IMG/VR virus record: IMGVR_UViG_3300012357_000009
Span: 1-36,125 of that record
DNA from: a virus
Direction: 5' to 3' (one strand)
Length of the DNA: 36,125 bases
Position numbers and translations under genes: made by a program. The notes below the pieces were generated by a model that was given only the letters and a program-made list of their open reading frames with translations, did not search any database and was not told the origin of the DNA. Positions 20,281-31,572 of the stretch are shown in pieces (the first letter of the stretch is position 1; each line of letters starts with the position of its first letter).

Positions 20281-20354
20281 AGCGGGTTGGAGAAGAGGTC
20301 TATCTCGCTAGTCTCATAAATTAGAGAACGCAAGTTCAAATCTTGCACCCGCTC
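20281..20354 (+). tRNA. tRNA with anticodon CAU (Met or modified Ile)
   Basis: All arms fold: acceptor AGCGGGT with ACCCGCT (7 bp), D-stem GAGA/TCTC with a GG-containing loop, anticodon stem CTAGT/ATTAG with loop CTCATAA, five-base variable loop AGAAC, and T-stem GCAAG/CTTGC with loop TTCAAAT. The G15-C48 tertiary pair is possible. The anticodon is CAU, so it is elongator Met, initiator Met or Ile2 after lysidine modification. Position 1-72 is an A-U pair, unlike the usual bacterial initiator. The discriminator base is C, which is unusual for these classes, and no CCA is encoded. It is adjacent to the late terminator. Confidence 0.9.
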
Positions 20355-21357: not shown

Positions 21358-21594
21358 ATGGTTCGTCTAAAAGTAAAAGAGATCGCAAAACAGAAGGGGC
21401 TGAGTCAACGCAAGCTCTTTCTTCGCTCAGGCGTGGATATCAGAACACTCCAGCGTATTTGGAGAGATGAGTACACTAACATCACGCTAGACACACTTGG
21501 CAGGCTAGCGCGTGCGTTGGGTGTGGATTCTTCAGAGCTTATAGAGGGAGTAGCAGAGGTGCCAGATCATATCAGGGAGTTACCACCAGAGTAG
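21358..21594 (+). CDS. XRE/Cro-CI family DNA-binding regulator
   Basis: The protein has 78 residues, essentially one HTH domain. The helix-turn-helix reads KEIAKQKGLSQRKLFLRSGV followed by DIRTLQRIWRDEYTNITLDT and LGRLARALGVDSSELI, the standard five-helix Cro/CI fold with a conserved GLSQ and LARALGV. It has a short acidic tail and no dimerisation domain, as in Cro-like phage regulators. Start ATG 21358 follows AGGCAGGA. It is the only plus-strand protein gene in a leftward region, which suggests a lysis-lysogeny or early-gene switch. A role as repressor of the surrounding promoters is an inference. Confidence 0.85.
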   Translation: MVRLKVKEIAKQKGLSQRKLFLRSGVDIRTLQRIWRDEYTNITLDTLGRLARALGVDSSELIEGVAEVPDHIRELPPE

Positions 21595-21621: not shown

Positions 21622-21659
21622 GGAGACGAGCGTACTCTTATGGTAGGGGCATACAAACA

Positions 21660-21737
21660 TTGCTTTGCGGAAGCAGAGGTTGGAGGTTCGAGTCCTTCTC
21701 CCGGCTCCATATGCCGGGATAGCTCAACGGTAGAGCG
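21660..21737 (+). tRNA. Circularly permuted tRNA, anticodon GCG (Arg), 3' part first
   Basis: The 3' part comes first: anticodon stem TTGCT (21660-21664) and AGCAG (21672-21676) around loop TTGCGGA, variable loop AGGTT, T-stem GGAGG/CCTTC (21682-21686, 21694-21698) with TTCGAGT, acceptor strand TCCCGGC (21699-21705), T, then encoded CCA (21707-21709). After three bases the 5' part begins: acceptor strand GCCGGGA (21713-21719), TA, D-stem GCTC/GAGC with loop AACGGTA, and G26 (21737). The acceptor strands match over 7 bp. Put together, the parts give one complete tRNA with exactly one base between D and anticodon stems, and with A15-U48, U8-A14 and G26-A44 contacts. No matching 5' half lies upstream and no matching 3' half lies downstream. 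It might also be a remnant of two broken tandem genes. Confidence 0.65.
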
Positions 21738-21871
21738 CTTAGTTTAGCACCTGCGACTTGTACGCCAAACTCACTACAGTTTGCTATTTGTCAAGTATGT
21801 GGCACTCATCCGAGATTGAAACGATCTGGCAAAGATGCGTCTCCAGGTGGGTATTCCCGTTAGGGTGTAGC
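21738..21871 (+). other. Non-coding trailer after the permuted tRNA
   Basis: No gene is seen. The stretch may pair with the leader of the permuted tRNA: GTTT (21742-21745) with AAAC (21655-21658), and GTACGCC (21760-21766) with GGCATAC (21648-21654), one mismatch. A small hairpin CAAACT/AGTTTG lies at 21766-21783. The rest shows no feature. Confidence 0.35.
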
Positions 21872-21911
21872 AAGAGGAGTGTTCTCACATTCGAGAACAC
21901 TCCTCTTTGTT
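21872..21911. terminator. Strong bidirectional terminator
   Basis: AAGAGGAGTGTTCTC (21872-21886) pairs over 15 bp with GAGAACACTCCTCTT (21893-21907) across a six-base loop, followed by TTTGTTGTTG. It would end both the permuted-tRNA transcript on the plus strand and the leftward operon on the minus strand. Confidence 0.75.
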
Positions 21912-24185: not shown

Positions 24186-24552
24186 TGTCAGGGAGGCGCA
24201 TAAAGTTGCCCGAAGGCAGAGCGTTTTTGATGGGAACGCTCTAAACCCCACTACTCAGCGTTGCTGCTTTGTAGGTAAAGTGGGCCTCGACAAGGTTAGC
24301 GAGCGGTACTTTCTCCTGAGCACTGACTTAACCCTCGTACATCTGTTTAACTCAGGAGTTCTAGGGCTTCAGGCTGGCCGCGCACCCAAAGGTAGGAACT
24401 CAAACGCTTCTCGCTAACGTAGTTTGAACTTGGCTGATTGTATCCAGGCAATACGTTCAAACTGAGTCTGGTCAGGTGAGCTTGTAACAGCCTGAGCCAA
24501 AGCGCTCAACAGTTTGCAAGCCCCTGGTTTTTAAACCAGAGGGTCCCTGACG
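24186..24552 (-). ncRNA. Candidate ~366-nt structured RNA with closing helix
   Basis: The whole stretch is closed by GTCAGGGA (24187-24194) with TCCCTGAC (24544-24551), 8 bp. Inside are further perfect stems: 24218-24225 with 24235-24242 (8 bp), 24247-24252 with 24279-24284, a long-range 9-bp stem 24295-24303 with 24410-24418, nested 24313-24320 with 24351-24358 (8 bp), and 24421-24429 with 24455-24463 (9 bp). Pairs TTGGCT (24430-24435) with AGCCAA (24495-24500), TCAGG with CCTGA (24472-24476, 24491-24495), and GCTTG with CAAGC (24480-24484, 24517-24521) cross one another, hinting at pseudoknots. A C(UUCG)G tetraloop appears only on the minus strand (24207-24218), and flanking genes also run minus, so I assign that strand. 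No convincing protein frame exists. Confidence 0.65.
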
Positions 24553-29874: not shown

Positions 29875-30171
29875 ATGCCAATAGAGATCAACGGGGTAAA
29901 ACTTTATGGCCCTGCTGAGACTGCGAAAATCCTGGGAACCGATGTCAATATGTTGCGTTATTATCGCAACGTCGGATACATCGAGGGGACGGTCATGGCG
30001 ACAGCGACTTACTACACAATGGAACAGATTGAAGCTGGACGAAAAGTCATCGCAGCACCGAAAAAACGAGGGCCAAAGAATCGGAACAAGCGGGATGAAG
30101 AGGACACCACCTCATCGGTGACGTATCCGTCTTCTTCCTACAGCGCGGCGGCACTGGGAGCGACGGCGTGA
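29875..30171 (+). CDS. MerR/excisionase-like HTH protein, C-terminus read into IS end
   Basis: The protein has 98 residues; GAAGGAGACC precedes ATG 29875. Residues 1-62 form a winged helix-turn-helix (LYGPAETAKILGTDVNMLRY followed by YRNVGYIEGTVMATATYYTM). A basic linker KKRGPKNRNKRDEEDTT follows. The final part (SSVTYPSSSYSAAALGATA) overlaps the end of the IS110-family element, and its composition (Ser/Ala-rich) differs from the core, so the natural C-terminus may have been replaced by the insertion. The gene may have been longer or different before insertion. A DNA-binding regulator or excisionase is the likely role. Confidence 0.6.
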   Translation: MPIEINGVKLYGPAETAKILGTDVNMLRYYRNVGYIEGTVMATATYYTMEQIEAGRKVIAAPKKRGPKNRNKRDEEDTTSSVTYPSSSYSAAALGATA

Positions 30172-31572
30172 GTGCGATGCGTGCGACCAATGGCACGCAA
30201 ATGCTTTTCAACGCTGTAGAGTTCCGGCGCTGGCAGATCGCTTCCGGGTGGCAGTCCGGTAAGCAGATCGGCGTCCTTTTTCAAGAGGCGATACAAGAGG
30301 CCAATAAACTGACCCGCGATCCGTCCGATCACGCGGGTTTTGCCGACGTATTCACCACGTTTGACATCGAAGGGGCACATACGGGCGACCAGAGGGTCGT
30401 AAATGGCCTTCCACGCTGCGTCATACGTGACCATGTTGATGACAGACATGTAGATAGCAGATCTGGCCTGCTTGTTTCCGGCCCTGTCCCGTTTGCTAGA
30501 GTCAAAGGTCGTGCCAGTCTGGCTATGCCTGATGCCCCAGCCGAGAGACAGTCGAAGCTTACCGATGGTGGCAAAATTGGCAATATTACCGATAGCCGCA
30601 AGCAATACGGCAGCGGTCACAGGTCCGACACCGGTAAAGGACAACAAGATCTGTCCTTCTCGACTGTTTGCCAGGATATCGGTAATCTCGCTTTCCAGAC
30701 GGCTGATATGTGTCTGATGCAAGCGCCATTCAGCGATCAACTGTTCTTGCTCAATGAGCAACGAGCGGCGGCGGCTGATATCCTTTGTGCCAATAGTGAC
30801 GCGGGACAGTTCCTGCAACTGTGCGAGGCCGCCACGCGATGGATAGCGCCACTGACGAGCTGCGCACAGATCATCGAGACTGGCACGGGCAACATCTTGA
30901 GGCGTGGGGAATTTCTCACGGATCGCCAGGGCTGCAAGCGTGTTCGGCTTTTTGAAGACTTGCGTGAATTCGGGGAACAGTTCATCGCAAATCGCAGTGA
31001 GCTTATTTTCTCGTCTGACGGTCTCCCTGGTCAATTCGCTGTGGTGTTTGACCAGGCCGCGCAACATAGTGGCGACTGGACTGGGCGGGAGAAGTCGGTG
31101 CACTCTCTCTTGTTCATCAGTCACCGGGGCGCGGCGCTCTATCTGGTTATAGAGTCGCAATCCAAGAGCCTGAGCATCACGTCTATCGCTTTTCTCTTGC
31201 CCATATCGCTTCATGGCCTGGATGCGATACAAGGTGACGCCGTGCTCTTGAAGGAATTGTTCCAATGCTGCTCCATAGTGTCCTGTTCGCTCCATGAGGA
31301 CGTGAGCATTCTTGAGACGACTCACATGGATCTTGATGGCATGCAGGAGCTTCTCGAAGCCTTCCCGGCTGTTGGAGAATGCGAAGGCAGGGCAGCGGCT
31401 AAAAACCTTGTGGTGGTCCAGTAGAGGGGTAGAGATGAGACCTGCATAGTGGCCGGTCTTGCCGATATCTACGCCGACGTAGATTGTATCAACCATATCG
31501 ACTCATCCTTTCAAACTGTAGAGGAGGAAGAGGGACAGACGGAGCGGAAGCGAGGCCAATCACCGATGAGGT
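30108..31572 (-). mobile_element. IS110-family insertion element (ends uncertain)
   Basis: The transposase at 30138-31496 is flanked by a perfect 13-bp inverted repeat: ACCTCATCGGTGA (30108-30120) and TCACCGATGAGGT (31560-31572). Those limits give 1465 bp, but they could be subterminal. If the element carries a leader RNA, as IS110 members do, its left end may lie further out, near 31735. No target duplication is visible, in line with IS110 behaviour. The right end overlaps the 3' part of the HTH gene. Confidence 0.6.
30138..31496 (-). CDS. IS110-family transposase (DEDD-RuvC plus Tnp20)
   Basis: The protein has 452 residues with AAGGATGAG before ATG 31496. The N-terminal DEDD (RuvC-like) domain shows Asp10 in IYVGVDIGKTGHYA, Glu69 in HVLMERTGHYGAAL and Asp104/Asp107 in KSDRRDAQALGLRL. 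A helical linker follows. The C-terminal Tnp20 domain is recognisable from LLSFTGVGPVTAAVLLAAIG, LRLSLGWGIRHSQTGTTFDS (Ser325 probably catalytic) and AGNKQARSAIYMSVINMV. It would cut and join DNA using an RNA guide encoded by its own element, as described for IS110 recombinases. The length is above the usual 330-400 residues. All catalytic residues seem intact, so it may be active. Confidence 0.9.
   Translation of the reverse strand: MVDTIYVGVDIGKTGHYAGLISTPLLDHHKVFSRCPAFAFSNSREGFEKLLHAIKIHVSRLKNAHVLMERTGHYGAALEQFLQEHGVTLYRIQAMKRYGQEKSDRRDAQALGLRLYNQIERRAPVTDEQERVHRLLPPSPVATMLRGLVKHHSELTRETVRRENKLTAICDELFPEFTQVFKKPNTLAALAIREKFPTPQDVARASLDDLCAARQWRYPSRGGLAQLQELSRVTIGTKDISRRRSLLIEQEQLIAEWRLHQTHISRLESEITDILANSREGQILLSFTGVGPVTAAVLLAAIGNIANFATIGKLRLSLGWGIRHSQTGTTFDSSKRDRAGNKQARSAIYMSVINMVTYDAAWKAIYDPLVARMCPFDVKRGEYVGKTRVIGRIAGQFIGLLYRLLKKDADLLTGLPPGSDLPAPELYSVEKHLRAIGRTHRTHAVAPSAAAL

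What the first reader, a model, noticed from the sequence alone, without database searches (positions are those of the whole stretch)
21660..21737. Circularly permuted tRNA gene: 3' half, CCA, then 5' half
Seen directly: an anticodon arm, variable loop, T-arm and 3' acceptor strand TCCCGGC followed by T and CCA (21660-21709), and only three bases later the 5' acceptor strand GCCGGGA, TA, D-arm and G26 (21713-21737). The acceptor strands match perfectly over 7 bp. The reassembled molecule has all arms with canonical loop sizes and plausible tertiary pairs (A15-U48, U8-A14, G26-A44). Leader and trailer can pair (GGCATAC with GTACGCC, one mismatch; AAAC with GTTT), which would bring the ends together. 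Known permuted tRNAs come from algae and archaea, and two-piece tmRNA shows that bacteria can process permuted RNAs. A phage example would need a bacterial ligation or a functional two-piece tRNA. Alternatively, it is what remains of two broken tandem tRNAs.
Basis: partly seen in the sequence, partly recalled or inferred. Interest (0 to 1): 0.92.

Follow-up and report, generated by a model that had tools for sequence, protein, structure and literature searches.

The report
Phage Y RNA mimicking permuted tRNA
The apparent 'back-to-front tRNA gene' is a Y RNA, a small RNA that carries a tRNA look-alike in scrambled order on a stem that binds Ro60-type proteins; this virus encodes a copy closely resembling those of Chloroflexota bacteria, with an unusually complete tRNA shape.

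Summary
At 21660-21737 there is an anticodon arm, T-arm, acceptor 3' strand and CCA, then, three bases later, the acceptor 5' strand and D-arm. The arrangement is not chance: 0 matches in 1000 shuffles of the window.

It is not a tRNA gene and not a pair of broken tRNAs. It is the tRNA-mimic domain of a longer RNA (21627-21767), a bacterial Y RNA, the class bound by Ro60/Rsr. A covariance model built only from three Chloroflexota RNAs finds it over its full length (66.9 bits, E 2.5e-14, the only hit in the window). Those three RNAs lie just upstream of a divergent Ro60-like gene. In several phages the same element lies directly upstream of a TROVE (Rsr) gene. Thirty relatives support all seven helices by compensatory changes (33 of 38 pairs).

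Circular permutation relative to tRNA is already known for Y RNA (YrlA, PDB 6CU1). What appears new is a complete cloverleaf: an anticodon arm with U33, R37 and A38, and often CCA. Also new is an 'orphan' phage copy: neither this 36-kb fragment nor its nearest relative encodes a detectable Ro protein. Binding to a host Ro60-like protein is inferred, not shown.

The parts
21627..21767 (+). whole Y RNA (stem plus complete permuted tRNA-like domain)
   Evidence: Full-length match (positions 1-145) to model R2, built without the window, 66.9 bits, E 2.5e-14
21630..21635 (+). helix 1, 5' strand GCGUAC (basal stem)
   Evidence: Pairs with 21760-21765; 9/9 pairs of this helix have compensatory changes in 30 relatives; same CGUACUCU.../...ACUUGUACG sequence in L171
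21760..21765 (+). helix 1, 3' strand GUACGC
21643..21650 (+). helix 2, 5' strand GUAGGGGC
   Evidence: Pairs with GCACCUGC (one G-A mismatch); its four modelled pairs all covary
21747..21754 (+). helix 2, 3' strand GCACCUGC
21651..21658 (+). conserved AUACAAAC: unpaired AUAC plus helix 3 5' strand AAAC
   Evidence: Same (U/A)UACAAAC in Chloroflexota Y RNAs
21742..21745 (+). helix 3, 3' strand GUUU, closes the tRNA-like domain
   Evidence: 4/4 pairs with two-sided changes
21660..21676 (+). anticodon arm, loop UUGCGGA (GCG at the anticodon position)
   Evidence: U33 in 18/18, R37 18/18, A38 17/18 of distinct arms; stem covaries
21682..21698 (+). T-arm
21699..21709 (+). acceptor 3' strand, U73 and CCA
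   Evidence: CCA also in 7 of 17 other distinct members with an anticodon arm
21710..21712 (+). UAU linker that joins CCA to the acceptor 5' strand (the permutation joint)
21713..21737 (+). acceptor 5' strand, U8-A9, D-arm, G26
21872..21907 (+). intrinsic-terminator-like hairpin, possible end of the transcript
   Evidence: 15-bp stem followed by a T-rich tail
21358..21594 (+). HTH (Cro/C1-type) gene upstream; context only
   Evidence: Pfam HTH_3; a related HTH protein lies near the closest viral Y RNA, in L237

Best explanation
21627-21767 encodes a Y RNA. Shown by sequence, structure and relatives: a basal stem (helices 1 and 2 with a conserved asymmetric internal loop) carries a tRNA-like domain in the circularly permuted order anticodon arm - T-arm - acceptor - D-arm, with the two acceptor strands joined through CCA-UAU. 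Inferred: the basal stem is bound by a Ro60/Rsr-type ring protein. The phage's own fragment has no such gene, so this would be the host's divergent Ro60-like protein, which Chloroflexota genomes encode just downstream of closely similar Y RNAs. The tRNA-like domain would then act as in YrlA, as a handle for tRNA-recognising enzymes or an exonuclease such as PNPase, or as a gate on the Ro ring. By supplying its own Y RNA the phage could redirect or block the host Ro RNP during infection. The domain is not expected to be spliced, ligated or used as a decoding tRNA. Confidence: about 0.9 for the identity as a Y RNA, about 0.5 for action through a host Ro60-like protein.
For: (1) Model R2, built from three Chloroflexota RNAs only, finds the window full length at 66.9 bits, E 2.5e-14, the only hit; ordinary tandem tRNAs reached at most 41 bits, as partial matches. 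(2) The three model RNAs lie directly upstream of a 'HEAT+VWA' gene. Pfam misses it, but the best phmmer PDB matches of the L170 protein are TROVE proteins (E 0.002), and in a Foldseek search with its AlphaFold model all 8 matches with E<=0.001 are Ro60 structures (best 4e-6). (3) In six phage records from five lineages the element lies 0.7-1.6 kb upstream of, and on the same strand as, the first TROVE match. (4) Rfam YrlA (RF02553) hits 21674-21741 at 32.1 bits, in the range (32-41 bits) of the elements next to Rsr genes. (5) Across 30 relatives, 95.5% of cells pair, 33/38 pairs have two-sided changes, 0/500 shuffles reach this, and slid controls fall to 36-50%. (6) Known YrlA: basal stem binds Rsr, tRNA-like domain mimics D, T and acceptor arms (PMC8394870), circularly permuted relative to tRNA (PMC11472068).
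Against: No RNA or protein-binding data. The window has neither TROVE nor the divergent Ro-like gene (the positive controls rang), so the partner is assumed to come from the host, whose identity is itself inferred. RF02553 is below its gathering score (32.1 vs 69 bits), and ordinary tandem tRNAs can score up to about 30 with that model. No sigma-70-type promoter was found nearby.
Confidence: 0.88

Rival explanations
1. A true circularly permuted tRNA gene, whose transcript is cut at the acceptor ends and either ligated (26 to 27) or used as a two-piece tRNA that decodes Arg or another codon.
For: Complete cloverleaf with canonical loops; CCA encoded; ARAGORN accepts the reassembled molecule; U33/R37/A38 kept in relatives; one relative (L013) lies inside a dense tRNA array.
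Against: Homologues lie next to Ro60-type genes and carry long conserved basal stems. The anticodon arm is shortened or missing in many close relatives, including the nearest one, L237, whose loop is 5 nt. CCA is missing in 10 of 18 distinct members with an anticodon arm. U73 with GCG, GUU with U73, and GCU without a long variable arm do not fit known identity rules (inference from tRNA knowledge).
Confidence: 0.04
2. Remnant of two broken tandem tRNA genes.
For: Tandem phage tRNAs often lie 1-10 bases apart, so a 3' half followed by a 5' half can arise by decay.
Against: Acceptor pairing is 7/7, not seen in about 125 ordinary adjacent pairs. The same order with covarying helices, including stems outside the tRNA halves, occurs in 30 relatives. 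No relative showed the halves in normal order.
Confidence: 0.01
3. A Y RNA that no longer works: a degraded copy picked up from a host rsr locus.
For: No Ro gene nearby; basal helix 1 is shorter (6 bp plus mismatches) than in host copies (about 8-13 bp).
Against: All seven helices are intact. A second viral contig (L237) has an 81% identical element over 97 bp with the same 3' stem strand and likewise no Ro-like gene in 59 kb, which suggests the viral copy is kept.
Confidence: 0.08
4. A permuted tmRNA or a natural permuted group I intron-exon gene that makes a circular tRNA.
For: Both have permuted order; this was my early idea for the actinophage copies.
Against: No tmRNA or group I intron match at relaxed thresholds in the window stretch or in five related loci; a D-stem is present, unlike tmRNA; the flanking strands pair as a Y stem.
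Confidence: 0.01

Closest known systems
YrlA bacterial Y RNA (Rfam RF02553; Salmonella YrlA, PDB 6CU1)
   Same: Basal stem plus tRNA-like domain in permuted order T-arm, acceptor, D-arm; association with Ro60/Rsr genes; conserved T- and D-loops.
   Different: Published YrlA is described as mimicking D, T and acceptor arms (PMC8394870); the Rfam consensus shows no anticodon arm and only a 2-nt acceptor loop without CCA. Here there is a full anticodon arm inserted 5' of the T-arm, a CCA-containing loop, and different basal-stem sequence; score below the family threshold.
Y RNA-like RNAs next to a divergent Ro60-like gene in Chloroflexota (L170, L171, L177, L197, L199; no Rfam or Pfam hit found here)
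   Same: Same helices 1 and 2, same permuted order, closely similar UAC(A)AAC and ACUUGUACGC-type segments.
   Different: The bacterial copies often come as 2-4 in a row upstream of the Ro-like gene; the phage copy is single and has no Ro gene.
Permuted tRNA genes of algae and archaea
   Same: 3' half precedes 5' half.
   Different: Those are processed to decoding tRNAs by splicing and tRNA-end enzymes; here a Ro-type stem flanks the domain and relatives lack anticodon arm or CCA.

Membership tests
Bacterial Y RNA (YrlA-type) | tRNA-like domain in the order T-arm, acceptor hairpin, D-arm | tested here: met
Bacterial Y RNA (YrlA-type) | 5' and 3' ends pair into a basal stem with an asymmetric internal loop | tested here: met
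   helices 1 and 2, covarying in 30 relatives
Bacterial Y RNA (YrlA-type) | gene close to a Ro60/Rsr (TROVE) gene | tested here: inconclusive
   Not in the window fragment; met for the same element in other phages and for closely similar RNAs in Chloroflexota
Bacterial Y RNA (YrlA-type) | Rfam RF02553 gathering score (69 bits) | tested here: not met
   32.1 bits; elements adjacent to Rsr genes also score only 32-41, so the Rfam model is narrow. I therefore call it a Y RNA, not an RF02553 member.
Bacterial Y RNA (YrlA-type) | binds a Ro60/Rsr protein | not testable with these tools
   needs a binding assay
Functional (permuted) tRNA gene | complete cloverleaf with CCA | tested here: met
Functional (permuted) tRNA gene | anticodon arm and CCA conserved among homologues | tested here: not met
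   anticodon arm reduced or absent in many relatives, CCA absent in 10 of 18 distinct members with an arm
Functional (permuted) tRNA gene | joined or charged product | not testable with these tools
   needs RNA sequencing
Permuted tmRNA / group I intron | match to Rfam tmRNA or group I models | tested here: not met

The most novel reading that the evidence does not exclude
The phage RNA is both a Y RNA and a cryptic tRNA: RNase P and 3' processing cut the CCA-UAU-G joint and leave a two-piece tRNA held together by the Ro-bound stem, with a free, possibly aminoacylated CCA end. The complete cloverleaf and retained CCA would then be used to feed, block or decoy tRNA enzymes, or anticodon nucleases of the host.
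Probability: 0.06. Interest if true: 0.9.

Novelty: new variant of a known kind. Interest (0 to 1): 0.5.

Why it matters
It explains a class of 'permuted tRNAs' that an annotator will keep meeting in phages: the sets fetched here held dozens of unannotated copies. It extends Y RNAs to Chloroflexota and at least one virus that appears to infect them, links them to a divergent Ro60-like protein that Pfam does not detect, and suggests that some Y RNAs are, or derive from, whole tRNAs including the anticodon arm. A phage carrying a Y RNA without a Ro protein makes a specific question testable: do phages use orphan Y RNAs to take over or block the host Ro RNP, or to decoy tRNA-cutting defences?

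Tried and rejected
Amidase-based search for related phages in viral contigs: no relatives. Permuted group I intron-exon hypothesis for the actinophage copies (a TTCAGACTAA motif and an anticodon-stem match): dropped, no group I match and the flanks fit other pairings. TROVE search in Chloroflexota genomes: negative, because the partner is too divergent for PF05731; resolved by phmmer and Foldseek. Core-only model R1 over Chloroflexota: mostly ordinary tandem tRNAs, so replaced by the full model R2. The first fold with a GGCAUACAA/UUGUACGCC stem was replaced after comparison with L170 and L171. The generic T-arm-CCA-D-arm scan mostly returned ordinary tandem tRNAs and served as a control. TROVE in 25 control records without a detected permuted element: 1 of 25 positive; one further 'control' with TROVE (L049) turned out to hold two permuted elements. 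Two records with permuted-type elements (L135, L039) have no TROVE.

Full report
The feature is real. Reassembled in normal order the halves make a 75-nt molecule that ARAGORN accepts as tRNA-Arg(gcg), while nothing is called in place. A finder for T-arm, acceptor, joint, acceptor, D-arm gives one hit in the window and none in 1000 dinucleotide shuffles. Ordinary adjacent phage tRNAs do not show it: in about 125 such junctions the neighbouring acceptor strands paired 7/7 in only two cases, and neither of those was a pair of ordinary tRNAs.

First lead. At relaxed thresholds the best Rfam match of the stretch is YrlA, 'Y RNA-like' (21674-21741, 32.1 bits, E 5e-5, gathering score 69). YrlA is the bacterial Y RNA: its basal stem binds the Ro60 orthologue Rsr and its other domain mimics the D, T and acceptor arms of tRNA (PMC8394870; PMC7790460). 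Structure comparison describes it as a circular permutation of tRNA (PMC11472068). A permuted tRNA order is therefore the hallmark of this class. The score alone would not settle it, because ordinary tandem tRNAs can reach about 30 bits with that model.

Gene neighbourhood in phages. A pattern scan of viral contigs gave 12 loci with the same permuted junction. Five of their records encode a TROVE (Ro60/Rsr) protein, as does a sixth found by the second scan (L129). In all six (G004 and G012 are one lineage) a permuted element lies 0.7-1.6 kb upstream of, and on the same strand as, the first TROVE match. Of 25 comparison records without a detected permuted element, 1 has TROVE. With the YrlA model the elements next to Rsr genes score 32-41 bits, the same range as the window.

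Bacterial relatives. One scan of 84,980 bacterial and archaeal genomes for the junction gave only two hits, both Chloroflexaceae. These share with the window the basal stem CGUACUCU.../...ACUUGUACG. A core model then led to further large-genome Chloroflexota with one to several such RNAs directly upstream of a 'HEAT+VWA' gene. Pfam does not recognise that protein. The best phmmer matches of the L170 protein in the PDB are TROVE proteins. Its AlphaFold model has modest confidence (pLDDT 57.5), but in Foldseek all eight matches with E<=0.001 are Ro60 structures. It is therefore most likely a divergent Ro60 homologue.

Independent test on the window. A covariance model of the whole RNA, built only from three of these bacterial copies, matches window 21627-21767 from its first to its last position at 66.9 bits, E 2.5e-14, and nothing else in the window. 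Ordinary tandem tRNAs reached at most 41 bits as partial matches. In a sample of 400 Chloroflexota genomes 15 had strong matches, often 2-3 side by side. On 30 aligned matches from bacteria and viruses, 95.5% of pair cells are standard, 33 of 38 pairs have changes on both sides, and no shuffle of 500 comes close; all seven helices are supported. The alignment was fitted to the model, which favours the structure somewhat, but slid versions drop to 36-50% paired.

Anatomy in the window. Helix 1 is 21630-21635/21760-21765; helix 2 is 21643-21650/21747-21754; helix 3 is 21655-21658/21742-21745. The anticodon arm is 21660-21676, T-arm 21682-21698, acceptor 3' strand with U73-CCA 21699-21709, joint UAU 21710-21712, acceptor 5' strand 21713-21719, D-arm 21722-21736, G26 21737. 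A terminator-like hairpin follows at 21872-21907.

What is unusual. The published domain has D, T and acceptor arms. Here, and in 17 other distinct members, a complete anticodon arm is present, with U33 in 18/18, purine 37 in 18/18 and A38 in 17/18, and with compensatory changes in its stem. CCA is kept in 8 of these 18 (one of the scans that supplied members required CCA, the others did not). Other members have a shortened arm or none, as does the window's nearest viral relative (L237, loop of 5 nt). The full cloverleaf is therefore a recurrent but optional state, as if these RNAs derive from whole tRNAs. I did not find this described, but the main Y RNA papers were not readable here, so this point stays open.

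Mechanism. Shown: the fold, the family and the genomic link of the family to Ro60-type proteins. Inferred: that the window RNA binds such a protein, and that the protein is the host's, since neither TROVE nor the divergent form (positive controls rang) is encoded in the 36-kb fragment; the 59-kb relative was tested for the divergent form only. A transposase of the window has relatives (43-50% identity) in large Chloroflexota genomes, some with these Y RNAs, which fits a Chloroflexota host but was sought only in that phylum. By analogy with YrlA, the RNA would tether or gate the Ro ring through its stem while presenting a tRNA mimic. The phage gain could be redirecting RNA decay, blocking the host RNP, or decoying tRNA-directed enzymes; these are not distinguished here. 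Decoding is unlikely: U73 does not suit an Arg-type GCG anticodon, and anticodon triplets change freely between relatives (inference from tRNA-identity rules).

Noticed in passing
window 24275-24551 (-): Strong HEARO RNA match (125 bits, RF02033).
   Followed up: no
window 30138-31496 (-): IS110-family transposase (DEDD_Tnp_IS110 + Transposase_20); relatives at 43-50% identity in large Chloroflexota genomes. Flanking bridge-RNA region not examined.
   Followed up: partly
window 20281-20354 (+): Ordinary tRNA-Met (CAT) gene.
   Followed up: no
L001 ~576-863 (Racecar), L002 ~597-833 (GodonK), L006 ~578-832 (Streptomyces nigrescens plasmid SNP1), L010, L012, L016-L019: Actinobacterial phages, a plasmid and related viral contigs carry two permuted tRNA-like modules side by side, each with a matching acceptor hairpin, most with a conserved (A)UCGACC-like segment, in unannotated stretches; no TROVE or Ro-like gene found in these records.
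   Followed up: partly
L243, L248, L250, L253, L257, L258, L266, L273, L286, L287, L292, L298, L299: A widespread unannotated viral RNA type, AGGAUACAUACAGCAAA...[permuted tRNA domain]...UGUAUCCUGU, with a sister type AGGUUCUUUUCAGCAA...GAGAACCUGU, often beside tRNA genes.
   Followed up: no
L015 around 6908 (-) and L171 around 1949 (-) (reverse-complement coordinates): Permuted tRNA-like elements resembling class II tRNAs with a long variable arm; in L171 the anticodon arm follows the D-arm, so the permutation point differs.
   Followed up: no
L170 2897-3580, L171 4563-5585: Near the Chloroflexota Ro60-like gene lie a ThiF/E1-like protein and an RNA ligase (PF09414), suggesting an RNA-repair type operon.
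   Followed up: no
L135 5852-6477 (-), 187-276 (-): A phage contig with ROOL RNA, a weak OLE match, a long tRNA array and two permuted elements but no TROVE.
   Followed up: no
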